Source of the DNA: an uncultured SAR86 cluster bacterium
GTDB lineage: Bacteria > Pseudomonadota > Gammaproteobacteria > Magnimaribacterales > Magnimaribacteraceae
Direction: 5' to 3'
Length of the DNA: 64,000 nt
Assembly: GCA_902542325.1 (NCBI GenBank)
Contig: CACBUE010000001.1
Span: 186,001-250,000, forward strand
Shown in pieces: positions 51,774 through 63,013 of this stretch; position 1 is the stretch's first letter, and the number at the start of each line of letters is the position of its first letter. The translations under genes were made by a program, and so were the position numbers. The notes beneath the pieces are model-generated. The model was not told the origin of the DNA. It did no database searches and saw only the letters and a program-made list of their open reading frames with translations.

Positions 51774-52490
51774 ATGGAAAATATTGAAAAAGGAGAACTA
51801 ATAACTACAGGAAAGGCTAAATCTTTGTATCAGTCTAATGAATCAGATTACCTGATAATGCACTATCGAGATGATACTTCTGCTTTCGATGGCAAGAAAA
51901 TTGAAAGTTTAGATGGGAAAGGAACCATTAATAATAAATTTAATGCTTTCATAATGGAGTATCTTGAAGGGGAGGGAATTCCTACTCACTTTGAAAAACT
52001 AATCAGTGAAACGGATAGTCTAGTTAAAAGACTTGATATGGCACCTGTAGAGTGTGTTGTAAGAAATGTTGCTGCTGGAAGTATTTGTAAAAGACTAGGT
52101 TTGGAGGAGGGCATGGACTTAAATCCACCTACATTCGAATTCTTTTATAAAGATGATGATCTTGGAGATCCAATGATCAATGAATATCATATTAAATCGT
52201 TCGGTTGGGCTACCGAGGATCAAGTAACTCAAATGCAAACAAAAGCTTTTCAAGTTAATGATGCTCTAAAGAAATTATTTTCTGAAGCCGGAATGATCTT
52301 AGTAGATTACAAGTTAGAATTTGGAGATTTCAAAGGTGAACTTTTGTTAGGAGATGAATTCACGCCAGATGGTTGCCGAGTTTGGGATGTAGAAACTAGA
52401 GAAAAGCTTGATAAAGACAGATTCAGACAAGGTCTAGGAGATGTTGTGGAGTCGTATCAGATAATGGCAAAAAAACTTGGAGTCATTTAG
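51774..52490 (+). CDS. purC: SAICAR synthetase
   Basis: Joins aspartate to CAIR in purine synthesis. [27 protein letters not shown] near residue 13-39, [18 protein letters not shown] near 92-110, [10 protein letters not shown] and [24 protein letters not shown] near 182-205 are characteristic. The 238 residues match E. coli PurC. It is the third gene of dapA-bamC-purC and ends two bases from the convergent korB. Confidence 0.96.
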
Positions 52491-52492
52491 AT

Positions 52493-53548
52493 TTATTTAA
52501 GACCAGAATTTATATCCTTTATTTTTTCTGAACCAGGACATAAATCATTAAGATCCATCTCATTTAAAGGCTTGTCTGAGACGTTTAGAATTTCTTTTAA
52601 ATCCTTAGCTTCTGGATCTGCATAAAGAAGACCTGTTAGAACCTTCCCATCTCTTTGAGATTCTTGAATATTTTGTATGGCCTTGATTTTATCTGCAGGA
52701 TCATAATTTTCGGAGATTTTTTCCAGAGAAAGTAACGAACCATCATGTAAAGGAACATCAACAGTTGATCCTTTTGGATAATCAGTAAGTATTTCCTTTC
52801 CAGAAGGTACAAAGTCTGGCCTAGACAGGGCGTCATTATGTTCTCGAATGTAGTCATAACTTTTAGTAGAGGTGTTGTGATTATTAAAGGTTACACAAGG
52901 AGAAATTATGTCTAAAAAAGAGAAACCTTTATGGGATAAGGCAGCTTTTAGCAAAGGAACTAATTGCTCTTTATCTCCAGAAAAGCTTCTTGCAACAAAA
53001 CTTGCACCTAATTGAATGGCCATGGAAGGTAAATCTATTGAAGGAAATAGATTATCATCGCCATATTTACTTTTCGATTCCAAGTCATTTGTAGCTGAAA
53101 ATTGACCTTTTGTAAGTCCATAAGTGCCATTATTTTCAACTATATATGTCATATTAAGCTGCCTTCTAGCACAGTGAATAAATTGACCAATACCTATTGA
53201 TGCGCTGTCTCCATCTCCAGAAATCCCCAAATATAATAGCTCATGATTCGCCATTGCAGCACCAGTAGCGATTGAAGGCATCCTTCCATGAACTGAGTTG
53301 AATCCATGAGATTGGTTCAAAAAGTAAGCGGGAGCTTTAGACGAACAACCTATTCCTGATAATTTTGCAACCTTGTAAGATTCTATACTGAGTTGAAAGC
53401 AAGCCTCAACTATTGCTGAGCTTATTGAGTCATGCCCACATCCTGCACAAAGGGTAGAGACAGCACCCTCATAATCTCTTCGTGTTAGTCCCAATTCATT
53501 TTTTTCAAGAAGTGGATGATGATTTTTTGGCTTTACTATATAAGTCAT
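52493..53548 (-). CDS. korB: 2-oxoacid:ferredoxin oxidoreductase, beta subunit
   Basis: Thiamine-diphosphate-binding subunit that decarboxylates a 2-oxoacid with CoA and ferredoxin. VSTLCAGCGHDSISSAIVEA near residue 33, GIGCSSKAPAYF near 65, HGRMPSIATGAAMANHEL, GDGDSASIGIGQFIHCARRQL near 112 and TYIVENNGTYGLTKGQFSAT near 134 are diagnostic of the Kor/Vor/Por beta family. It has 351 residues. It lies last in the three-gene operon. A 2-oxoglutarate substrate is the likeliest, but is not proven. Confidence 0.9.
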   Translation of the reverse strand: MTYIVKPKNHHPLLEKNELGLTRRDYEGAVSTLCAGCGHDSISSAIVEACFQLSIESYKVAKLSGIGCSSKAPAYFLNQSHGFNSVHGRMPSIATGAAMANHELLYLGISGDGDSASIGIGQFIHCARRQLNMTYIVENNGTYGLTKGQFSATNDLESKSKYGDDNLFPSIDLPSMAIQLGASFVARSFSGDKEQLVPLLKAALSHKGFSFLDIISPCVTFNNHNTSTKSYDYIREHNDALSRPDFVPSGKEILTDYPKGSTVDVPLHDGSLLSLEKISENYDPADKIKAIQNIQESQRDGKVLTGLLYADPEAKDLKEILNVSDKPLNEMDLNDLCPGSEKIKDINSGLK

Positions 53549-53557
53549 TTAATTTCC

Positions 53558-55375
53558 TTACGAGGCTACTAATGCCGGTTTACCGGATATGTGAGCATTT
53601 ATTTTATTTGTAATATGTTCAGCGGTTATAGGTTGACCATCAAAACAAAGAATAGATACAAGTTTGTCAGGAATTATCCCACCTTCAGCCATAATTAATG
53701 TTCTCATTTGACCATCTCTGTTTTGTTCAACTATAAAAAGCAGATCATGGTCTTCAATGAATTCCCAAACTTCAAGGTTAAATGGGAAGGCCCTAATTCT
53801 CATTGCATCAATATTTAAATTTTGTTCATCGAGAACATCAAGAGCCTCTTGCATAGAGCAATCTGTACTTCCAAAATAAATAATTCCCATCGAACTAGTA
53901 TTCTTTTCTTGATTAAATACTGGACTAGGCACTAAAGAAGAGGCTGTTTGAAATTTCTTTACAAGTCTTGTTAGCATTTCAGCATTTTTAACCCCATCTT
54001 CAGTATAACCGGCATATTCATCATGTGAGGTACCTCTTGTAAAATATGCCCCTTTTTCTGGATGTGTTCCAGGATATGTTCGATAAGGTATGCCATCTCC
54101 ATCAACGTCTAAATATCTTCCAAATTTCTCTATTCCATCTAAATCTTCTTTAGATAATACTTTCCCTCTATCATATTGATTATTATCGTCCCACTCGAAT
54201 TCTTTTGTAGACCAATCATTCATGCCTAGGTCTAAGTCCAGAAGCACAATAACAGGCGTCTGAAGTCGATCTGCTAGATCAAAAGCTTCCACGGCAAAAT
54301 CAAAACACTCCTTAGGATCTGATGGGATTAATAAAATATGTTTTGTATCTCCATGAGAAGCATATGCTGAACACAAGATATCCGACTGTTGCGTTCTGGT
54401 TGGCATACCTGTTGAGGGACCACCTCTTTGCACATTAAATAAAACAGTAGGAACTTCAGCAAAATAGGCTAATCCAATAAACTCGCTCATTAAGGAGACT
54501 CCTGGTCCACTAGTAGCAGTAAAAGCCCTCGCTCCGTTCCAGTTTGCTCCAATAGTCATACCCATGGCAGCTAATTCATCTTCAGCTTGAATAAATGCAA
54601 ATTTATTTTTTTCAGTGCCAATTTCGACCCTCATTTTTTCACTATATTTGCTGTAAGATTCTGCAAGAGATGTGGAAGGTGTAATAGGATACCAGGCACA
54701 AACAGTGGCGCCACCATATACACAACCCAAACCGGCAGCATCATTTCCACTAGTTAGGATTAATCCATCAGTTTTATTTGATTTGTTAACCTTGATATCA
54801 CAATAATCTTTGAAGTTTTCTTCTGCATAGTTATACCCAATGTTGAGAGCTTTTACATTAGGTTCGATGAGTTTTTCTTTACCTTTAAATTGTTCTTCTA
54901 TTAGTGAGATATATATATCTTTATCCATTTCAAGTATAGAAGCTAACAAGCCTACATACCCAAGATTTTTAAAGAGAAGTCTTTGCTTCGGATTGGTGAA
55001 TTCTTGGACGCATAATTTCGTGAGCGGAATTTCTAGGATATTTATATCTTCCCTGCCAAAATCTCTTTTCCAAGAAGAATCATAGATAAGGTAACCTCCC
55101 GCTTTAAGCTCTTCTACATCCTTTTGATAAGATTGAGGATTCATTGCAACAAATAAATCTATGCCTTCTCTTCTACCGAGGTATCCCTTTTCATTGACCC
55201 TTACCTCGAACCAAGTTGGCAAGCCTTGTATATTTGACGGAAAGATATTTTTTGGACTAACAGGTATTCCAGACCTAAAGACTCCTTTAGCAAACATTTG
55301 ATTTGCGCTTGCAGAGCCAGAGCCATTAACATTTGCAAATTTAATTACAAAGTCATTTACAGATTTTATCTTCAT
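53558..55375 (-). CDS. korA: 2-oxoacid:ferredoxin oxidoreductase, fused gamma-alpha subunit
   Basis: The N-terminal ~190 residues form the gamma domain (VKFANVNGSGSASANQMFAKG-like stretch and SRREGIDLFVAMNPQ), fused to the alpha domain (about 210-600) with SGNDAAGLGCVYGGATVCAWYPITPSTSLAES and ATSGPGVSLMSEFIGLA. The protein binds the oxoacid and CoA side of the reaction. ATG at 55375 is used: it overlaps the stop of the upstream gene as TAATG and starts at the conserved gamma domain. It precedes korB by nine bases. The fused architecture is that of the aerobic 2-oxoglutarate oxidoreductase type. Confidence 0.9.
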   Translation of the reverse strand: MKIKSVNDFVIKFANVNGSGSASANQMFAKGVFRSGIPVSPKNIFPSNIQGLPTWFEVRVNEKGYLGRREGIDLFVAMNPQSYQKDVEELKAGGYLIYDSSWKRDFGREDINILEIPLTKLCVQEFTNPKQRLLFKNLGYVGLLASILEMDKDIYISLIEEQFKGKEKLIEPNVKALNIGYNYAEENFKDYCDIKVNKSNKTDGLILTSGNDAAGLGCVYGGATVCAWYPITPSTSLAESYSKYSEKMRVEIGTEKNKFAFIQAEDELAAMGMTIGANWNGARAFTATSGPGVSLMSEFIGLAYFAEVPTVLFNVQRGGPSTGMPTRTQQSDILCSAYASHGDTKHILLIPSDPKECFDFAVEAFDLADRLQTPVIVLLDLDLGMNDWSTKEFEWDDNNQYDRGKVLSKEDLDGIEKFGRYLDVDGDGIPYRTYPGTHPEKGAYFTRGTSHDEYAGYTEDGVKNAEMLTRLVKKFQTASSLVPSPVFNQEKNTSSMGIIYFGSTDCSMQEALDVLDEQNLNIDAMRIRAFPFNLEVWEFIEDHDLLFIVEQNRDGQMRTLIMAEGGIIPDKLVSILCFDGQPITAEHITNKINAHISGKPALVAS

Positions 55376-57396
55376 TATGAATATGCCTTTGCTTCCTGAT
55401 AAAGGAAATTTTGCATGTCCCAAGCTCCTGTAGGACATCTCTCTGCACATAAACCACAATGCAGGCAGACATCTTCGTCTTTCACCATAACACGTGAAGT
55501 TTGCTCTAATTCCTCAGAAACCAAAATTTGCTGGTTTAAATTAATGGCAGGGATTCTTAGTTTATTTCTTAGATTTTCTTCAGAGTCATTGTGAACAAAA
55601 CTTATGCAGTCTGTAGGGCAAATATCTACACATGCATCACACTCAATACAAAGATCTTCTGAGAAGACAGTTTGAATATCACAGTTTAAGCAACGCTCCG
55701 CTTCCTCAAGAGCAGTGATTTCATCAAACCCCAACTCAACTTCCATCTTAAGATCTTTTAGAGCGTTTTTTTGGTCTGCATGAGGCACTAAAAACCTTTT
55801 AGCTTGCGAAATGTCATTATTGTAAGACCATTCGTGGACTCCCATTTTCTGACTTATAAGTGTAGTTGTTGGCTCTGGTCTATCGTATAGATCTGAACTT
55901 TTACAGAATTTATCGATTGAAATTGCCGCTTGATGACCATGCGCGGCTGCCCAAATTATATTTTCTGGCCCCCATGCGGCATCTCCACCAAAGAAAATCT
56001 TCTCATTTGATGACTGAAAAGTTACTTTATCGACTATTGGCATATCCCACTCACCAAATTCTATTCCAATATCTCTTTCAATCCACTCAAAAGCATTATC
56101 CTGTCCAATTGCAACTAATACATCATCACATTCAATAATAATCGGATCATCACCTGTAGGAACAAGACTTCTTTTGCCCTCTTCATCAAATACAGCTTCT
56201 ACTTTTTCAAATTCCATTCCAACTAGCTTGTCGTCTTTGATTAAGAAGCGTTTGGGTACGTGATTATCTAGGATAGGAATTCCTTCACCGAGAGCATCCT
56301 CTATCTCCCATTCTGAAGCTTTCATTTGGTCGAAAGGACTTCTAACTGCAACCTTCACTTCTTCAGCGCCAAGTCTTATAGCCGTTCTACAACAATCCAT
56401 TGCTGTATTTCCACCGCCCAATACTATTACTTTTTTTCCTACTGATTTCGTATGTTCAAAGGCTATGCTTGTAAGCCAATCTATCCCTATGTGTATATTT
56501 TTATCAGCAGCTTCTCTACCTTCGATATTTATATCTCTACCTTTAGGTGCTCCTGTTCCCACGAAGACTGCATCAAAATCTTTCTCTAAAAATTCTTTCA
56601 TACTCTTTATTTCTGAATTAAATACAGTTTTGATGCCCAAGTTCAAGACTTGATCAACTTCCTCATTTAGAACCTCCTCCGGAAGTCTAAAAGAGGGTAT
56701 ATTCGTTCTCATGAGACCTCCAGCTTGTGGATCTCTTTCGAAGAGAGTGCATTGATAACCCATCATTACTAAATCTCTTGCAACTGTTAATGAAGCGGGA
56801 CCACCTCCTATGAGACCAACTTTCTTTCCATTGCCAATTTCGGGGGTAGGTATTAGATTCGCAATATCATCTTTATAATCATAGGTAACTCTCTTAAGCC
56901 TACAAATTGCTACTGCTTTTTCATGAGTTCTAGTTCTCCGACAGGCAGGTTCACAGGGTCTGTCACAGGTTCTTCCGAGTATTCCAGGAAATACATTAGA
57001 CTCCCAATTTAGCATGTATGCTTCATTATAGTTGCCTTGAGAAATTTGTCTTATGTACTCAGGTACAGGTGTATGAGCAGGGCAGGCGTGCTGGCATTCT
57101 ACAACTTTATGATAGTACTGAGGATTTGCAGTATCTGTAGGAGGTACATATTGGGTAACGGTTTGCTCAGGTACAGAGAAAAGGTCGAGACTCTCTTGGC
57201 TTTTCGCTTGATCTATTTTAGCCTTTAGTTGTTCAACTACTTGCCATCTTAATTCTTGAGCTTTATCTAAATCGTGAGTCTGAAGTGACCTTCTCAAATC
57301 ATACCCTAATTCCTCTCTTAGAGTTTTAGGTACAGCTACTTTAACCCACCAAGTATTGTACCTTTTAAACAAGTACCTTGTGTCTGCGTTACTCAT
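55375..57396 (-). CDS. GltD-like FAD/NAD(P)H oxidoreductase with 4Fe-4S domains and an integrase-like N-terminal domain
   Basis: Residues ~1-65 (RYLFKRYNTWWVKVAVPKTL, then DLRRSLQTHDLDKAQELRW) resemble the arm-type DNA-binding N-terminal domain found on tyrosine recombinases (DUF6538-like). From about 95 the protein is GltD-like: Cys101, Cys105, Cys144, Cys148 and Cys152 can hold Fe-S clusters, VGLIGGGPASLTVA near 183 binds FAD, and VIVLGGGNTAMDCC near 315 binds NAD(P)H. The C-terminus has CIECDACVDICPTDC and CLHCGLCAERCPTGA, two 4Fe-4S motifs. It probably passes electrons between NAD(P)H and the KorAB ferredoxin site. No methionine codon separates the first domain from the rest. Confidence 0.85.
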   Translation of the reverse strand: MSNADTRYLFKRYNTWWVKVAVPKTLREELGYDLRRSLQTHDLDKAQELRWQVVEQLKAKIDQAKSQESLDLFSVPEQTVTQYVPPTDTANPQYYHKVVECQHACPAHTPVPEYIRQISQGNYNEAYMLNWESNVFPGILGRTCDRPCEPACRRTRTHEKAVAICRLKRVTYDYKDDIANLIPTPEIGNGKKVGLIGGGPASLTVARDLVMMGYQCTLFERDPQAGGLMRTNIPSFRLPEEVLNEEVDQVLNLGIKTVFNSEIKSMKEFLEKDFDAVFVGTGAPKGRDINIEGREAADKNIHIGIDWLTSIAFEHTKSVGKKVIVLGGGNTAMDCCRTAIRLGAEEVKVAVRSPFDQMKASEWEIEDALGEGIPILDNHVPKRFLIKDDKLVGMEFEKVEAVFDEEGKRSLVPTGDDPIIIECDDVLVAIGQDNAFEWIERDIGIEFGEWDMPIVDKVTFQSSNEKIFFGGDAAWGPENIIWAAAHGHQAAISIDKFCKSSDLYDRPEPTTTLISQKMGVHEWSYNNDISQAKRFLVPHADQKNALKDLKMEVELGFDEITALEEAERCLNCDIQTVFSEDLCIECDACVDICPTDCISFVHNDSEENLRNKLRIPAINLNQQILVSEELEQTSRVMVKDEDVCLHCGLCAERCPTGAWDMQNFLYQEAKAYS

Positions 57397-57437
57397 ATTC
57401 TGATATTAAATTCATTCCAATTAAATTAGGAATATAT

Positions 57438-57447
57438 GGTACATGTA
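57438..57447. promoter_or_regulatory. First copy of a GGTACATGTA repeat
   Basis: GGTACATGTA within ATGGTACATGTA, 41 bases before the flavoprotein start on the minus strand and near its probable promoter. It matches the fuller palindrome GGTACATGTACC at 57515-57526, 77 bases away. An unknown regulator could bind both. Confidence 0.45.
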
Positions 57448-57490
57448 TTAGGTTTATATACCAATACTTTTTATGAAAATTGTCTATATG

Positions 57491-57513
57491 TTAATGATAA
57501 TCATTATCATTAA
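57491..57513. promoter_or_regulatory. Fur box
   Basis: A perfect 11-1-11 palindrome, TTAATGATAAT-C-ATTATCATTAA. Its core contains two overlapping GATAATGAT-type hexamer arrays as in the Fur consensus GATAATGATAATCATTATC. It sits in the divergent spacer, about 80 bases before iscR and 95 bases before the flavoprotein start, so it can control either side. Confidence 0.85.
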
Positions 57514-57514
57514 T

Positions 57515-57526
57515 GGTACATGTACC
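57515..57526. promoter_or_regulatory. Palindrome GGTACATGTACC
   Basis: A perfect 12-base palindrome immediately after the Fur-like box. A 12-base copy of its left part (ATGGTACATGTA) recurs at 57436-57447. It is a candidate operator for an unidentified dimeric regulator. Confidence 0.5.
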
Positions 57527-57552
57527 TGTTTTTTTGTTTTTTTGGACACATA

Positions 57553-57584
57553 ATTGTTGACTAATTTACTCGGGAACATATAAT
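57553..57584 (+). promoter_or_regulatory. iscR promoter overlapping a type 1 IscR site
   Basis: Bases 57553-57577 match 21 of 25 positions of the E. coli type 1 IscR consensus (key pieces TTGACT near 57557 and the later CTCGGG). TTGACT at 57557-57562 is the -35 and TATAAT at 57579-57584 the -10, 16 bases apart. The predicted transcript start is at or next to the ATG (57592), so the mRNA may be leaderless. IscR autorepression through its Fe-S form is expected. Confidence 0.8.
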
Positions 57585-57591
57585 TCCGCCC

Positions 57592-58044
57592 ATGAACTTG
57601 ACTACCAAAGGCAAATACGCTGTCACAGCAGCACTTGATTTAGCGATGCAACAAACAATTGCAGATGGCTTTACAAAGATTTCTGATGTTGCAAAACGAC
57701 AAGATATACCTGCTGCTTACTTAGAACAAATATTTAGCCGTTTGAGAAAGGCTGGTATTTTACATGCAGCAAGAGGGCCTAATGGTGGATTTAAGCTTTC
57801 TAAGCAAAGAGATGAAGTGATGATCGGTGAGATCATAAGTGCAGTTGAAAGAAATATGGATGCTACCCAATGTTCTGGTGAGGGTATTTGCAACAGCGGT
57901 ACTAAGTGTATCGCACATAATTTTTGGATAGATTTTAATGACAATGTTAATGAATTTTTAATGAATAGATCTCTGGATGATGTCATTACAAACAGGAGAG
58001 GTAGTGTTGAACAAATGGGCCAAGCCCTTATAGCTACAGGATAA
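57592..58044 (+). CDS. iscR: Fe-S cluster-responsive regulator IscR
   Basis: Rrf2-family repressor that senses Fe-S status and controls its own isc operon. The N-terminal winged helix (MNLTTKGKYAVTAALDLA, QDIPAAYLEQIFSRLRKAGIL, RGPNGGFKLS) is followed by the cluster ligands Cys94, Cys100, Cys106 and His109 in CSGEGICNSGTKCIAH. The 150 residues are typical. No ribosome-binding site is visible before the ATG. It is divergent from the oxidoreductase operon. Confidence 0.97.
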   Translation: MNLTTKGKYAVTAALDLAMQQTIADGFTKISDVAKRQDIPAAYLEQIFSRLRKAGILHAARGPNGGFKLSKQRDEVMIGEIISAVERNMDATQCSGEGICNSGTKCIAHNFWIDFNDNVNEFLMNRSLDDVITNRRGSVEQMGQALIATG

Positions 58045-58047
58045 AAC

Positions 58048-59262
58048 ATGCAATTACCTATTTACCTAGATTATGCCTCTACCACACCGGCAGACCCTCG
58101 AGTGGTCAAGAAGATGCAAGAATGTTTATCGCTTGATGGAAATTTTGGAAATCCAGCTTCAAGATCGCATGCTTTTGGATGGAAGGCTGAAGAGGCAACT
58201 GAAGAGGCCCGACAGCACGTTGCAGATTTGGTTAATTGTGATCCTAGAGAAATTGTTTGGACCTCCGGTGCTACAGAATCTGACAATCTAGCGATTAAAG
58301 GAGCAGCTAGATTTTACAAGACTAAAGGAAATCACATCGTAACCTCAAAAATAGAACATAAAGCTGTCCTAGATAGTTGCAGGCAATTGGAAAGAGAAGG
58401 CTTTGACGTCACCTACCTCGATCCAGACAGCAATGGAATAATATCTCCAGATCTAGTTAAAGAATCACTAACAGACAAAACAATTTTAGTTAGCTTAATG
58501 CACATAAATAATGAAATTGGAGTCGTTAATGACATCAAGGCTATAGGAGAAATAACTAGGGAAGCCGGTATAATATTTCATGTTGATGCTGCACAAAGCA
58601 CAGGTAAGCTTCCAATTGACCTTTCGGAACTTCAGGTAGATCTTATGTCCTTTTCAGCACATAAAACTTACGGACCTAAAGGAATAGGTGCTATGTACGC
58701 GAGCAGAAAACCTAGGGTTAGATTAGAAGCTCAAATTCATGGTGGGGGACATGAAAGAGGCATGAGATCTGGTACTTTAGCCACCCATCAAATCGTTGGC
58801 ATGGGTGAGGCCTTTAGAATAGCAAAGGTAGACATGGATGAGGATAATAAGAGAATAGAAAACCTTAGAAATAAGTTCTGGGATGCTATTAAAGATATGG
58901 AAGAAGTGTATTTAAACGGTGATGAGATATCCAGAGCACCTGGATTCTTAAATGTAAGCTTCAATTATGTAGAGGGTGAATCATTAATAATGGCCCTTAA
59001 AGATATAGCAGTATCTTCCGGTTCAGCTTGTACTTCAGCTAGCTTAGAGCCCTCTTATGTTCTAAGAGCTTTAGGGCTAAAAGACGAACTAGCACATAGT
59101 TCTATTAGATTTGCTATAGGAAGATTCACTACTGAAGAAGAAGTAGAATATACAATTGACTTGGTTAGAGACTCGGTGGAAAAATTAAGGACTCTTTCTC
59201 CTTTATGGGACATGTATAAAGACGGTGTCGATTTGGACACAATTGAATGGGCGGAAGGCTAA
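58048..59262 (+). CDS. iscS: Cysteine desulfurase IscS
   Basis: PLP enzyme that takes sulfur from cysteine for Fe-S clusters and thio-modified tRNA. Lys206 in [12 protein letters not shown] binds [14 protein letters not shown] near 178-188 is conserved, and the active-site Cys328 lies in [14 protein letters not shown] on the mobile loop. The 404 residues equal E. coli IscS. It begins three bases after the iscR stop and is followed by iscU. Confidence 0.98.
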
Positions 59263-59288
59263 TTTAGTAATTTTAAATGAGGTAAAGT

Positions 59289-59693
59289 ATGGCATACAGC
59301 AAGAAAGTAGTTGAGAAGTTTGAAAACACACTTAACGAACCAGAAAAAAACAGTGTTGGAAGATGGGACCCCTCTGATTTGGATATCGGAACAGGCATGG
59401 TTGGTGCTCCAGCTTGTGGGGATGTCATGCGGCTTCAAATTAAGTGTAAACCAGAAAACAATAGTCATGTAATAAGCGATGTAAAATTCAAGACGTATGG
59501 CTGTGGCTCGGCGATTGCTTCCTCTAGTGAATTAGTTGATATGCTAATTGGTAAAACACTTGAAGAAGCTCGAGAAATAAAGAATAAAGATATTGCAAAT
59601 GCTCTTGATCTGCCTCCAATAAAAATTCATTGCTCAGTTTTAGCTGAAGATAGTATTCACAAAGCTATCGAGGATTACGAATCAAAGCTCTAA
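59289..59693 (+). CDS. iscU: Fe-S scaffold protein IscU
   Basis: Scaffold on which [2Fe-2S] and [4Fe-4S] clusters are built. Ligand cysteines Cys43 (APACGDV), Cys72 (YGCGSAIA) and Cys115 (IHCSVLAED) with Asp45 and His114 are all present. The protein lacks the usual LPPVK HscA-binding motif in exact form but retains LPPIKIHCS, which is close to it. A slightly longer N-terminus gives 134 residues. It follows iscS by 26 bases. Confidence 0.96.
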   Translation: MAYSKKVVEKFENTLNEPEKNSVGRWDPSDLDIGTGMVGAPACGDVMRLQIKCKPENNSHVISDVKFKTYGCGSAIASSSELVDMLIGKTLEEAREIKNKDIANALDLPPIKIHCSVLAEDSIHKAIEDYESKL

Positions 59694-59694
59694 A

Positions 59695-60051
59695 ATGTCT
59701 TCGGTAAACTCTTATACACCAAAGGAATTCAGCTTATCTGAGGCTGCGATTAATCACTTTTCCTTGAACTTGGCTGGAAAAGATTCTAAAGGAATAAGGT
59801 TGTCAGTATCAGAATCTACAGGTTGCTCAGGATACACCTACCAAATTGATTATGTAGAAAAACAAGAGTCTGATGATCTAGTTTTTGAATTTGAAGATGT
59901 AACTGTATTTATCGATGCAAATTCTTTCAAATACTTAAAAGGAACAAAAGTAGACTTCCTAGTTGAAGGCGTCAATGAAGGCATTAAGTTCTTAAATCCA
60001 AATGTCAAAGCTATCTGCGGATGCGGTGAAAGCTTTGAGATGGATATCTAG
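59695..60051 (+). CDS. iscA: A-type Fe-S carrier IscA
   Basis: A-type carrier that delivers clusters to target proteins. The conserved cysteines are in STGCSGYTYQIDYV near 42 and the C-terminal CGCGESFEM. At 118 residues it is a little longer than E. coli IscA because of an N-terminal extension. It begins one base after the iscU stop. Whether it is IscA or a related A-type protein is decided mainly by position. Confidence 0.93.
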   Translation: MSSVNSYTPKEFSLSEAAINHFSLNLAGKDSKGIRLSVSESTGCSGYTYQIDYVEKQESDDLVFEFEDVTVFIDANSFKYLKGTKVDFLVEGVNEGIKFLNPNVKAICGCGESFEMDI

Positions 60052-60057
60052 ACTCTT

Positions 60058-60396
60058 ATGACCAAGATCAAAGTCTTCCCACACGAAGAACTTTGTCCAG
60101 AAGGAGCGGAAATCGAAGCAAAGCCTGGACAGACGCTTGCAGAAGCATTGCTTGATAATAAAATTAAAATAGAGCACGCATGTGAGCTTTCATGTGCTTG
60201 TACAACATGTCATGTAATCGTGAGAAACGGATTTGAAAACCTTTCTGATGCATCTGATGATGAAGAAGATATGCTTGATAAGGCATGGGGTTTAGAAGCG
60301 GAGTCAAGGTTAAGTTGCCAAGTCGAGATCTCCGAATTTGATTTAGAAATCGAGCTTCCAAAATATACTATCAATATGGTTTCGGAGAATCATTGA
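60058..60396 (+). CDS. fdx: [2Fe-2S] ferredoxin Fdx
   Basis: Adrenodoxin-type ferredoxin that supplies electrons to Fe-S assembly. Ligands Cys42, Cys48, Cys51 and Cys87 fit (CELSCACTTCH and SRLSCQVEI), with an extra Cys46. The 112 residues match E. coli Fdx. In the standard isc operon hscB and hscA lie between iscA and fdx; here only six bases separate them. Confidence 0.96.
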   Translation: MTKIKVFPHEELCPEGAEIEAKPGQTLAEALLDNKIKIEHACELSCACTTCHVIVRNGFENLSDASDDEEDMLDKAWGLEAESRLSCQVEISEFDLEIELPKYTINMVSENH

Positions 60397-60590
60397 TGTT
60401 GTGGACTGATGTAAATGAAATAGCTATTGAACTAGCGGAGAAGCATCCAGATATTGATCCTACCTATATTTTGTTTACTGATTTAAGGAGATTAGTAATG
60501 GAACTGGAAGGTTTCATTGATAGCCCGGAAAAGACAAATGAAAAAATATTAGAAGCTATTCAAATGTTGTGGATTGAAGAGAGAGAATAG
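60396..60590 (+). CDS. iscX: IscX (YfhJ)
   Basis: Small acidic protein at the end of isc operons that binds IscS and iron and modulates the desulfurase. LWTDVNEIAIELAEKHPDIDP near the start and ILFTDLRRLVMELEGF are characteristic. ATG at 60396 overlaps the fdx stop (TGATG) and has GGAG nine bases upstream, preferred over a TTG three bases earlier. The 64 residues match. Confidence 0.95.
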   Translation: MLWTDVNEIAIELAEKHPDIDPTYILFTDLRRLVMELEGFIDSPEKTNEKILEAIQMLWIEERE

Positions 60591-60609
60591 CTATTATTTT
60601 CTTCGTAAG

Positions 60610-60615
60610 TATAAT
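60610..60615 (+). promoter_or_regulatory. Candidate -10 element of ndk
   Basis: A TATAAT hexamer in the 54-base iscX-ndk gap, about 30 bases before the ATG. No convincing -35 at 16-18 bases. AGGGGAAATAAG gives the ribosome-binding site. Confidence 0.4.
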
Positions 60616-60644
60616 GCGTTCCTTTAAAAACTAGGGGAAATAAG

Positions 60645-61049
60645 ATGGCTTTAGAACGCACTCTTTCAATAATAAAACCGGATGCTGTTGCAAAAGGGCA
60701 TGTAGATGAAATCTGTAAGAGACTAGAAGATGCCGGTCTATCAATTACTGAGAAAAAAAGTATTCATATGGATGATGCTTTAGCAGAGGGATTTTATATT
60801 GAACATAAAGGAAAGCCTTTTTTTGAAGATCTGATCAAATTCATGACTTCAGGGCCCATTCAGGTTCAAGTTCTAGAAGGCGAAAATGCTATTTTCAATT
60901 ATAGAGAAGTCATGGGTAGCACTAATCCTAAAGAAGCGACACCTGGGACTATTAGGGCAGACTTTGCTGAATCAATAGATGCTAATGCAGTTCATGGTTC
61001 TGACTCTCCGGAATCTGCCAAAAGAGAAATCGACTATTTCTTTGGCTAA
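60645..61049 (+). CDS. ndk: Nucleoside diphosphate kinase
   Basis: Transfers the gamma phosphate among nucleoside triphosphates. [15 protein letters not shown] near the start and the active His117 in [16 protein letters not shown] are present. The 134 residues are typical (E. coli 143 with tag differences). In many gammaproteobacteria rlmN and pilF-like genes lie between ndk and rodZ; here rodZ follows after 13 bases. Confidence 0.97.
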
Positions 61050-61062
61050 ATGAAATTAAGCT

Positions 61063-61926
61063 GTGACTGATGCACAAGTGATTTCTGTAGGAGAGATATT
61101 AGCTTCTGCGAGGAAGAAAAAAAGGTTACGTTATAAAAAACTTTCTTCCGAATTAAATATCGATGAAATTTATCTTATTGCTCTAGAGGAGGGTAACTTT
61201 GATCTCATTCCAGGAGGCGAGGCTTACGTAAAAGGTTTTCTCAGATCATATGCTAAAAAGTTAGATTTAAATCCAGATGATGTTATAAATAACTACCTAA
61301 GCTCAAGGAAAGGTTCTTTAAAAGCTACAAAAAAATTATCACCAAAAAATCAGATAAATAGTAATCCTAAAAATCTCCCCAAAATTGTACTAATAGCAAC
61401 CTTTTCAATAATTTTTCTTTTATTTTTAGGAGTAATATTTCGAGAATACGAAAGTGATAACCAAAAAGTTACAAATACAGTTGAAACCTCTACAACTATT
61501 ACTTCAAATGATTCTAATGAGATGCATGATGAAAGTACTCTTCTTATTTTAAAACCCGACGAGAATCAATCTTCAGAATCTACTGGAGACCTAATTACAG
61601 CTATAAATAGTGATCTTGACTCTCAAACAAGTGCATTACCCCTAGAAGAAACGCCTTTAAACAGAATTGATATAAAAGTTTATGGAGATTGCTGGCTTGA
61701 AGTTTTCAATGAGAATAAAAGAATGATTTACAACCTAGCAAAGGAAGGAGATGAGTTTGTATTGAATGAATCAAAAGTAAAAATTATCGCTGGAAATTTT
61801 AAGAATGTTGAAGTGTCATTTAATGATAAAATGGTAAATTTAGAGGATTATGCCAATACTAAACAAGTAAGTTGTATTGTATTGCCTTCAGGGGATTGTA
61901 GTGATTTCAGAACAGCAGATAGTTAG
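61063..61926 (+). CDS. rodZ: Cytoskeletal protein RodZ
   Basis: Inner-membrane protein that links MreB to cell-wall elongation. N-terminal Xre-like helix-turn-helix (about 8-75; [38 protein letters not shown]), one membrane helix at about 107-126, a serine/threonine-rich linker, and a C-terminal DUF4115 beta domain (about 205-280). The GTG start gives 287 residues; E. coli RodZ has 337. It overlaps ispG by 26 bases. The ndk-rodZ-ispG-hisS order is conserved. Confidence 0.9.
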
Positions 61927-63013
61927 AAAGGAAACAAGAAAGATATACGTAGGTGATGTTCCTGTTGGCGGCGATTCACCTATTTCAGTTCAAAGCATGA
62001 CAAATACTCTAACTGCTGATTCAGTCTCTACTATAAGGCAAATCCAACAGTTACATGAAGCAGGTGCAGATATTGTAAGGGTGTCGGTTCCTGATCAAGA
62101 AGCAGCTGACTCTTTTCATGTCATTAAAAGAAAGTCACCAGTGCCATTAGTTGCTGATATTCATTTTGATTACACAATGGCTCTTGAAGCGATTAAAGGA
62201 GGAGCCGACTGTATTAGGATTAATCCAGGGAACATTGGAAAAGAAGAAAAGATAAAAGAAGTAATATCCGCAGCTAAAGATACTAATACGCCTATTAGAG
62301 TTGGTATAAATGCCGGTTCTCTAGAAAGGAAATTGCAAATTAAGTACGGTGAACCCAACTCAGATGCTTTGGTAGAGTCAGCCTTAAATCATATAAATAT
62401 TTTAAAAAGATTAAACTTCGAAGATTTTAAATTAAGCATTAAAGCCTCAGATGTTCAAATGACCATTGAAAGTTATAGAAAAATTTCAGAATTGATTGAT
62501 CAGCCGCTTCATTTAGGAATTACTGAAGCAGGTGGTTTCAGATCTGGCACTGTCAAATCTGCAATGGGTCTTGGCTCTTTATTAATGGACGGCATAGGGG
62601 ATACTATTAGGATTTCGTTGGCCTCAGATCCGATCGATGAAATCAAAGTAGGTTGGGATATCCTGAGAGGCTTGAAAATAAGGTCTAGAGGTATAAATTT
62701 CATTGCCTGTCCGAGTTGTTCACGAATGAACTTTGATGTGATTGGAACAATGAATCAACTTGAATCTAGACTGGAAGATATTAAGGAAAATATTGATGTG
62801 GCTGTTATAGGTTGCTACGTAAATGGTCCTGGAGAATCAAAACATACTGACATAGGGGTTACTGGTGGATCTCCAAAAAACCTTATATATATAGATGGCA
62901 AACCAGATCATAAGGTAGAAAGTGCAGATCTTGCGGACCATCTTGAGAAAATGATCCGAGAAAAGGTTAAAGAAAAATCTAAAATCGAAGAGAACTTAAT
63001 TGCAAAAACATAA
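61901..63013 (+). CDS. ispG: 4-hydroxy-3-methylbut-2-enyl diphosphate synthase
   Basis: [4Fe-4S] enzyme of the MEP pathway. [20 protein letters not shown] near residue 13, [20 protein letters not shown] near 110, [11 protein letters not shown] near 265 and [15 protein letters not shown] near 305, the latter two with cluster cysteines. GTG at 61901 is chosen over an earlier TTG because AGGGGA lies five bases upstream and the N-terminus fits. It overlaps the rodZ tail and its stop overlaps hisS (TAATG). Confidence 0.95.

What the first reader, a model, noticed from the sequence alone, without database searches (positions are those of the whole stretch)
55375..57396. Flavoprotein of the oxoacid oxidoreductase fused to an integrase-type arm-binding domain
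Residues 1-65 look like the N-terminal domain of tyrosine recombinases (RYLFKRYNTWWVKVAVPKTL, then LRRSLQTHDLDKAQEL), and are in frame with a GltD-like flavoprotein plus two 4Fe-4S motifs. There is no internal start that could free the enzyme. A recombinase DNA-binding module on an electron-transfer enzyme is not expected; it may now bind a partner protein, or give the enzyme DNA-binding or redox-sensing capacity.
Basis: partly seen in the sequence, partly recalled or inferred. Interest (0 to 1): 0.7.

Follow-up and report, generated by a model that had tools for sequence, protein, structure and literature searches.

The report
Integrase domain turned enzyme self-regulator
In the ocean bacterium SAR86 and in one other group, the DNA-gripping end of a virus-type integrase, together with what look like its DNA landing sites, is attached to the first enzyme of several energy-metabolism operons, apparently turning that enzyme into a switch for its own genes.

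Summary
The fusion is real: residues 8-65 of the 673-aa KorC-like flavoprotein are DUF6538 (E 1.4e-9), a domain that also heads tyrosine recombinases. In 203 genomes of the order (SAR86), 122 carry the domain, one match each, on changing hosts: KorC, IscS, Rieske protein or a short membrane-tailed stub. In another gammaproteobacterial order the same domain (61-71% identical) heads KorA or an NfnA-like subunit, though the Kor enzymes are only 28-33% identical. Close orthologues outside SAR86 lack it. A short motif travels with the domain: GGTACA is the first or second most enriched 6-mer upstream of korC (59 seen, 1.0 expected), iscS (13/0.25) and korA/nfnA (19/0.6); a divergent subtype has ATGRGTACA. 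54 domain-less korC loci show no excess (3/4.4). Other DUF6538 frames, mostly integrases, have it before their own start (15/1.0, 35 loci).

Best reading: an integrase arm-binding domain was captured with its sites as a portable 5' autoregulatory cassette, making the first enzyme of an operon its own, PutA-like regulator. DNA binding, repression and signal are inferred.

The parts
57202..57375 (-). DUF6538 (integrase arm-binding type) domain, residues 8-65 of the fusion protein
   Evidence: PF20172 37.9 bits, cut-off 27; 43.2 bits alone
57145..57201 (-). variable linker between domain and enzyme
   Evidence: alignment A5, 19 rows: few conserved columns here; no in-frame ATG/GTG/TTG (read)
55375..57144 (-). 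KorC-like enzyme part: Fer4_20, Pyr_redox_2, two C-terminal 4Fe-4S motifs
   Evidence: Pfam; 64-66% identical to three domain-less orthologues compared
57515..57526 (.). palindromic GGTACATGTACC, putative operator, -130 to -119 from the korC start
   Evidence: two places in the 1.307-Mb genome, the other inside a coding frame
57438..57443 (.). further GGTACA/TGTACC copy, -47 from the korC start; TGTACCAT here is the longest invariant block in 14 f1-type korC upstream regions
57397..57591 (.). shared korC / iscR divergent intergenic region carrying the putative operators
57557..57584 (+). promoter-like TTGACT-16-TATAAT for iscR
   Evidence: 11 of 12 matches; the scan finds 2 sites, shuffles 2.4
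53558..55375 (-). KorA (2-oxoacid:acceptor oxidoreductase alpha), second gene of the operon
   Evidence: TIGR03710 580.1 bits, cut-off 482.75; start
52493..53548 (-). KorB (beta), third gene of the operon
   Evidence: TPP_enzyme_C and PFO_beta_C
57592..58044 (+). IscR-like Rrf2 regulator, present here; not found at this locus in 12 of 12 family-f3 genomes examined
   Evidence: Rrf2 110.1 bits; tblastn
58048..59262 (+). IscS, which bears the domain instead of KorC in some family-f3 genomes
   Evidence: Aminotran_5 289.3 bits

Best explanation
The N-terminal DUF6538 domain is the arm-site-binding domain of a tyrosine recombinase, captured together with its DNA sites, and now works as an autogenous regulator. 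The domain recognises repeated (A)GGTACA sites in the promoter of its own operon. Because it is fused to the first enzyme of the operon, the amount (and possibly the state) of that enzyme feeds back on transcription of korCAB, most likely as repression. In family f1 the sites lie between the divergent korC and iscR starts, so iscR-isc may be affected too. Domain plus operator behaves as a portable 5' cassette: it sits on the first gene of korCAB, korAB, nfnA-gltD-korAB, isc or petABC gene sets, or on a membrane-tailed stub. Shown here by computation: the fusion, host changes, motif enrichment, its tie to the domain and its presence at DUF6538 integrases. Inferred: operon structure, DNA binding, repression, and any sensing of redox, Fe-S or substrate state.
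For: (1) Unbiased 6-mer test of 250 bp upstream: GGTACA ranks first in 17 SAR86 korC loci (59 seen, 1.03 expected) and 6 iscS loci (13, 0.25); in 8 korA/nfnA loci of another order AGGTAC is first (22, 0.62) and GGTACA second (19, 0.62). (2) The divergent subtype (stub, Rieske) has a shifted motif, ATGRGTACA (4 of 21 have C for R); the T before the searched string is present in 21 of 21 full contexts of 29 sites. (3) Without the domain there is no excess: 54 domain-less korC loci, 3 seen, 4.44 expected; no domain hit in any of 55 such loci. (4) In 35 other DUF6538 frames, 23 with a Phage_integrase match at E 0.01 (20 over its cut-off), GGTACA is the top 6-mer in 120 bp upstream (15, 1.03); 11 of 35 have a tandem [GC]TACA pair (9 of these 11 with the integrase match), against 5 of 706 background windows. 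Integrases and fusions share only this domain, so it is the likeliest reader. (5) Sites cluster at the domain gene: 3 of 12 AAGGTACA in single-contig G036; 3 of 19 TGRGTACAW in G035. (6) Domain 61-71% identical across orders, attached Kor enzymes 28-33%. (7) The host is the first gene in the gene sets read. (8) 122 of 203 genomes, one match each. (9) Precedents: PMC2951348, PMC5293562.
Against: The two f2/g20 korC loci read have one site each, and 3 of 8 korA/nfnA loci have one in 250 bp. 24 of 35 other DUF6538 frames lack the tandem pair, and 12 of 35 gave no integrase match, mostly short frames. Of three plasmid frames with the domain, one has tandem TGTACC; the other two have no GGTACA. Five of the eight GGTACA copies around the window gene lie inside coding sequence and are not counted as operators; the palindrome counts as two copies. 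In G051 2 of 4 and in G060 1 of 2 copies at the domain gene are coding too. No regulon beyond the own promoter was found; a second cluster in G060 lies inside argC. Related loci inflate the p-values. Outside SAR86 the one-copy rule fails: G1095 and G1104 have a second, weak match.
Confidence: 0.72

Rival explanations
1. Another transcription factor reads GGTACA; promoter and domain were merely moved together, and the domain itself binds a protein partner or shapes the enzyme complex.
For: Promoter and domain do move together; no binding was shown.
Against: The motif changes with the domain subtype, recurs at DUF6538 integrases of other classes with no shared promoter, and shows no excess at domain-less korC. 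Five unrelated hosts argue against a specific protein partner.
Confidence: 0.12
2. The domain acts on RNA: it binds the motif in the 5' leader or around the start codon and controls translation of its own message.
For: In stub genes sites sit at -9 (9 of 9 read) and in most of them a copy overlaps the start codon (ATGAGTACA).
Against: Type A sites occur in both orientations, in most f1 loci as a perfect palindrome about 120-150 bp upstream; integrase relatives act on DNA.
Confidence: 0.07
3. The domain is a tether: it fixes its own locus to the membrane or to an enzyme complex (transertion, nucleoid placement), not a transcriptional regulator.
For: 40 of 122 genomes have a stub-sized frame; in the 9 stubs read the most hydrophobic stretch is the C-terminal tail; Rieske proteins are membrane bound (established knowledge).
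Against: KorC, KorA and IscS hosts are soluble-type enzymes; sites lie upstream of the start.
Confidence: 0.06
4. A neutral relic of a decayed integrase that happens to be in frame.
For: Origin from an integrase is likely.
Against: Conserved residues across 19 korC rows with a variable linker, one match in each of 122 genomes, host switch korC to iscS with the domain kept.
Confidence: 0.03

Closest known systems
Trifunctional PutA (PMC5293562, abstract read)
   Same: A metabolic flavoenzyme with an N-terminal DNA-binding domain that is an autogenous repressor; versions with and without the domain exist.
   Different: PutA uses a ribbon-helix-helix domain on one enzyme; here an integrase arm-type domain sits on at least five different hosts and brings its sites along. 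Switching by proline is known for PutA; no switch was tested here.
KplE1 IntS and autoregulated tRNA-linked integrases (PMC2951348; abstract, passages and section 10 read)
   Same: The integrase represses its own gene because attL, with arm-type sites, overlaps the int promoter; proposed to be widespread.
   Different: There the protein is a recombinase; here only the N-terminal domain remains, fused to housekeeping enzymes.
IscR control of isc operons (PMC6599224, PMC4618611: listing only)
   Same: Control of Fe-S assembly genes, with iscR as the first gene of the operon in one of these listings.
   Different: In family f3 iscR was not found at the locus and the first gene is DUF6538-IscS, or unfused iscS divergent from DUF6538-korC.
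BzdR-type regulators, enzyme plus DNA-binding domain (PMC3602430, start of abstract in the listing)
   Same: A regulator formed by joining a DNA-binding domain to an enzyme.
   Different: There the enzyme became a regulator; here the enzyme domains look complete by Pfam.

Membership tests
DUF6538 (PF20172) | Profile match above the curated cut-off | tested here: met
   37.9 bits against 27; also over it in KorA-, NfnA-, Rieske- and KorC-fused representatives; the stub L126 (25.4) is just below, and IscS-fused L102 is not listed at E 0.01 but is found in its genome by the wider profile
Tyrosine recombinase | Catalytic Phage_integrase domain | tested here: not met
   Not among the families listed for the 673-aa protein (best 25 of 29 shown); present in P0001 and in 22 of 34 other DUF6538 frames at E 0.01
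Autogenous enzyme-regulator (PutA-like) | DNA-binding-type domain fused to an apparently complete enzyme | tested here: met
   (homology only)
Autogenous enzyme-regulator (PutA-like) | Repeated specific sites in the own promoter | tested here: met
   (sequence only)
Autogenous enzyme-regulator (PutA-like) | Measured DNA binding and repression; switch by substrate or redox | not testable with these tools
2-oxoacid:acceptor oxidoreductase (OAFO, KorAB) | KorA over the family cut-off, next to KorB | tested here: met
   TIGR03710 580.1 bits, cut-off 482.75; KorB is below the TIGR02177 cut-off (191.8 against 261.9)
NAD(P)-binding protein PRK12771 (KorC-like) | NCBIfam score over its cut-off | tested here: not met
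   409.2 bits, cut-off 516: related, not a member by that score
Integrase arm-type sites | Tandem copies of one motif between att core and int start, read by the N-terminal domain | tested here: inconclusive
   Tandem pairs in 11 of 35 loci; some upstream regions end in tRNA-like 3' sequence by eye; att cores not mapped

The most novel reading that the evidence does not exclude
A mobile regulatory cassette made of operator plus in-frame N-terminal DNA-binding domain, born from an integrase and its arm sites, moves between operons and between bacterial orders. It makes whichever gene is first in the operon the operon's own regulator, has switched from KorC to IscS within SAR86, and may stand in for IscR.
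Probability: 0.5. Interest if true: 0.88.

Novelty: new variant of a known kind. Interest (0 to 1): 0.78.

Why it matters
It would show how a bacterial regulator can arise in one step: a recombinase domain arrives with its own binding sites, so fusion to a gene gives a working feedback loop at once. It gives the unnamed domain DUF6538 a testable DNA target, and it suggests how SAR86, one of the most abundant surface-ocean groups, may control 2-oxoacid oxidation, Fe-S assembly and the bc1 complex. The domain-less, KorC-fused, KorA-fused and IscS-fused forms are a natural series for experiments.

Tried and rejected
Three scans of viral contigs (P0001, A2, A1) gave no confirmed relative; the 64-aa domain gave no match in phages and 3 in plasmids; PHROGs 0 families for 3 domain copies; PDB sequences: nothing better than E 0.13; no Rfam family in 52000-62000. 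A shared Fe-S theme of all hosts was considered and weakened: the KorA and IscS representatives show no Fe-S family in Pfam; 'first gene of an electron-transfer or Fe-S gene set' fits better. A wider regulon was looked for: the second GGTACATGTACC of the genome lies in a coding frame; the G060 cluster lies in argC upstream of erpA, kept in 2 close relatives and absent or single in the other genomes. GGTACA copies inside the domain's coding sequence were dropped as probably codon-driven. The korA identities are invalid (wrong frame) and were redone. The first domain-less control used 47 of 55 loci; repeated on 54, with L054 dropped because its upstream is cut. That type A fusions are one clade is not rejected (AU p 0.405) but not shown (84 columns, long branches, bootstrap not settled).
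Full report
What is there. The reading frame 55375-57396 (-) encodes 673 residues. Pfam finds DUF6538 at residues 8-65 above its cut-off, then the GltD-like part and two 4Fe-4S motifs. It is the first gene of korC-korA-korB; KorA is over the TIGR03710 cut-off. Divergently lie iscR, iscS and further isc genes. Reading the sequence, no in-frame ATG, GTG or TTG lies between about residues 62 and 98.

Which orthologues have it. The window lies in a SAR86 genome (closest named record: SAR86 AG-461-C18, 99%; handle G000). One search shows the best 80 of 165 loci. Of 29 loci whose N-terminus I read, 7 (67-99% identical) start with the domain; 21 (64-67%), titled Halieaceae and other groups, start at the enzyme (MKPTD or similar); one (L054) is cut by its contig end. 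No domain hit was found in any of the 55 loci L046-L100. Within this orthologue group the fusion is thus a SAR86 trait as far as seen.

Host changes in SAR86. A profile of both domain subtypes hit 122 of 203 genomes of the order, one match each at E 0.001 (PF20172 alone: 120 of 203, one each). By frame length: korC-size 58, plus 2 cut by contig ends; iscS-size 12; Rieske-size 9; stub 40; integrase 1. I read or matched the protein in 8 of the 12 iscS-size, 2 of the 9 Rieske-size and 9 of the 40 stub genomes; one representative each was checked with Pfam, some also with NCBIfam. Eighty-one genomes had none, among them 13 of the 40 that are at least 90% complete with at most 5% contamination. In the tree the f3 IscS domains lie with f3 KorC domains, three successive starred forks leaving KorC rows outside (one KorC row, L108, falls among IscS without support); with the other type A domains outside, the host switched from KorC to IscS there. 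In IscS-fused loci the kor operon is replaced by a TPP enzyme that NCBIfam names acetolactate synthase (PRK08322, 856 bits, cut-off 509; 8 of 8 genomes) and an aldehyde dehydrogenase whose best PDB match is acylating succinate-semialdehyde dehydrogenase (8cei, E 1.4e-160; 7 of 8), perhaps a bypass of the same 2-oxoglutarate step (inferred; cyanobacteria use such a decarboxylase-dehydrogenase pair, PMC10418658, passages). Neither enzyme was found in the two KorC-type f3 loci. iscR was found in 4 of 4 f1 loci and in 0 of 12 f3 genomes at this locus.

Other orders. In 369 genomes of the class, 7 had a match; outside SAR86 only G368 was strong (109 bits; the other four 36 bits or less). In its order (147 genomes, 9 hits) the domain heads KorA in 5, an NfnA-like reductase in 1 and integrases in 3 (integrases checked). 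In the family of G687 (40 genomes, 6 hits, two genomes already counted) two more have KorA and one more NfnA-like, from their first 110 residues; one (G652) is a weak match. In G687 the gene order is nfnA, gltD-like, korA, korB. Compared in three loci (L151, L162, L165), the domain is 61-71% identical to the window's, while KorA is 28-31%, KorB 30-33% (two loci) and the GltD-like protein 30% (one locus); three domain-less Halieaceae-type operons are 60-66% (KorA in two of them). The module has therefore probably moved between non-orthologous operons. In a phylum sample (398 genomes, 31 hits, the window among them) all other hits were 52 bits or less.

The motif. Looking upstream of 41 loci I saw repeated GGTACA/TGTACC (type A) or ATGRGTACA (type B). 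The window genome as held has 323 GGTACA; three lie in the 195-bp korC-iscR gap (two of them halves of one palindrome), where 0.05 would be expected from that density. Unbiased 6-mer counts confirmed the motif in each set; for the type B stubs GTACAT (14 seen, 0.45 expected) and GGGTAC (11, 0.24) lead, for the two Rieske loci GGGTAC (7, 0.18). In 54 domain-less korC loci 3 were seen and 4.44 expected (47 loci: 3 and 4.02). AAGGTACA: 3 of 12 in G036, 4 of 34 in G051 and 2 of 21 in G060 lie at the domain gene (2 and 1 of the latter two sets are in its coding part); G060 has a second cluster of 4 inside argC. TGRGTACAW: 3 of 19 in G035, 3 of 25 in G041, 2 of 21 in G047. Weak cases: one site only in the two f2 korC loci and in 3 of 8 korA/nfnA loci.

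Origin. Thirty-five DUF6538 frames outside the fused clade were tested; 23 have a Phage_integrase match at E 0.01, 20 of them over the cut-off, the rest being mostly short or cut frames. GGTACA is the top 6-mer in the 120 bp before their starts, and 11 of 35 have a tandem pair against 5 of 706 windows (9 of the 11 have the integrase match). Of three plasmid frames with the domain, an Azospirillum one has TGTACC three times at exact 13-bp steps and two have no GGTACA. The SAR86 integrase P0001 has GGTACA and GGGTACA before its start. Integrases that repress themselves because attL overlaps their promoter are described (PMC2951348; abstract, passages, section 10). Since integrases and fusions share only the N-terminal domain, it is the probable reader of the motif.

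Mechanism and standing. Best supported: autogenous control of the operon through its first enzyme, as in trifunctional PutA (PMC5293562, abstract). Binding, sign and signal are inferred. The term DUF6538 is in 0 papers of the held library. The capped listings of searches show, by title and start of abstract, no such fusion, and one search found no paper; papers beyond those listings were not seen. The SAR86 paper PMC11582366 mentions 2-oxoglutarate ferredoxin oxidoreductases and has no occurrence of integrase or IscR (passages).

Noticed in passing
window 57493-57511: AATGATAATCATTATCATT resembles a Fur box (recalled consensus) in the korC-iscR gap; in the alignment of 14 f1-type upstream regions only the two nearest relatives (L021, L025) keep it.
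   Followed up: partly
L102:973-4157 and corresponding places in 8 f3 genomes: The kor operon is replaced by an acetolactate-synthase-like TPP enzyme (8 of 8) plus a succinate-semialdehyde-dehydrogenase-like enzyme (7 of 8), perhaps a swap of the 2-oxoglutarate step.
   Followed up: partly
L101-L105, L107-L109, L135-L138: iscR not found at the isc locus in any of 12 f3 genomes, while iscS remains; the rest of those genomes was not searched for iscR.
   Followed up: partly
L207 (G060:C6:18945-19547): Second GGTACA cluster, inside argC, upstream of erpA; kept in two close relatives, single copies in five other f3 genomes.
   Followed up: partly
L126:4944-5384 and L133:4798-5310: Stub genes of DUF6538 plus a hydrophobic tail lie in different gene neighbourhoods in the two loci whose neighbours I read.
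   Followed up: partly
L038, L047, L093, L099: SAR86-like (L038) or Halieaceae-like korC in records titled Cytophagales, Verrucomicrobiaceae and Saprospiraceae; misbinning or transfer.
   Followed up: no
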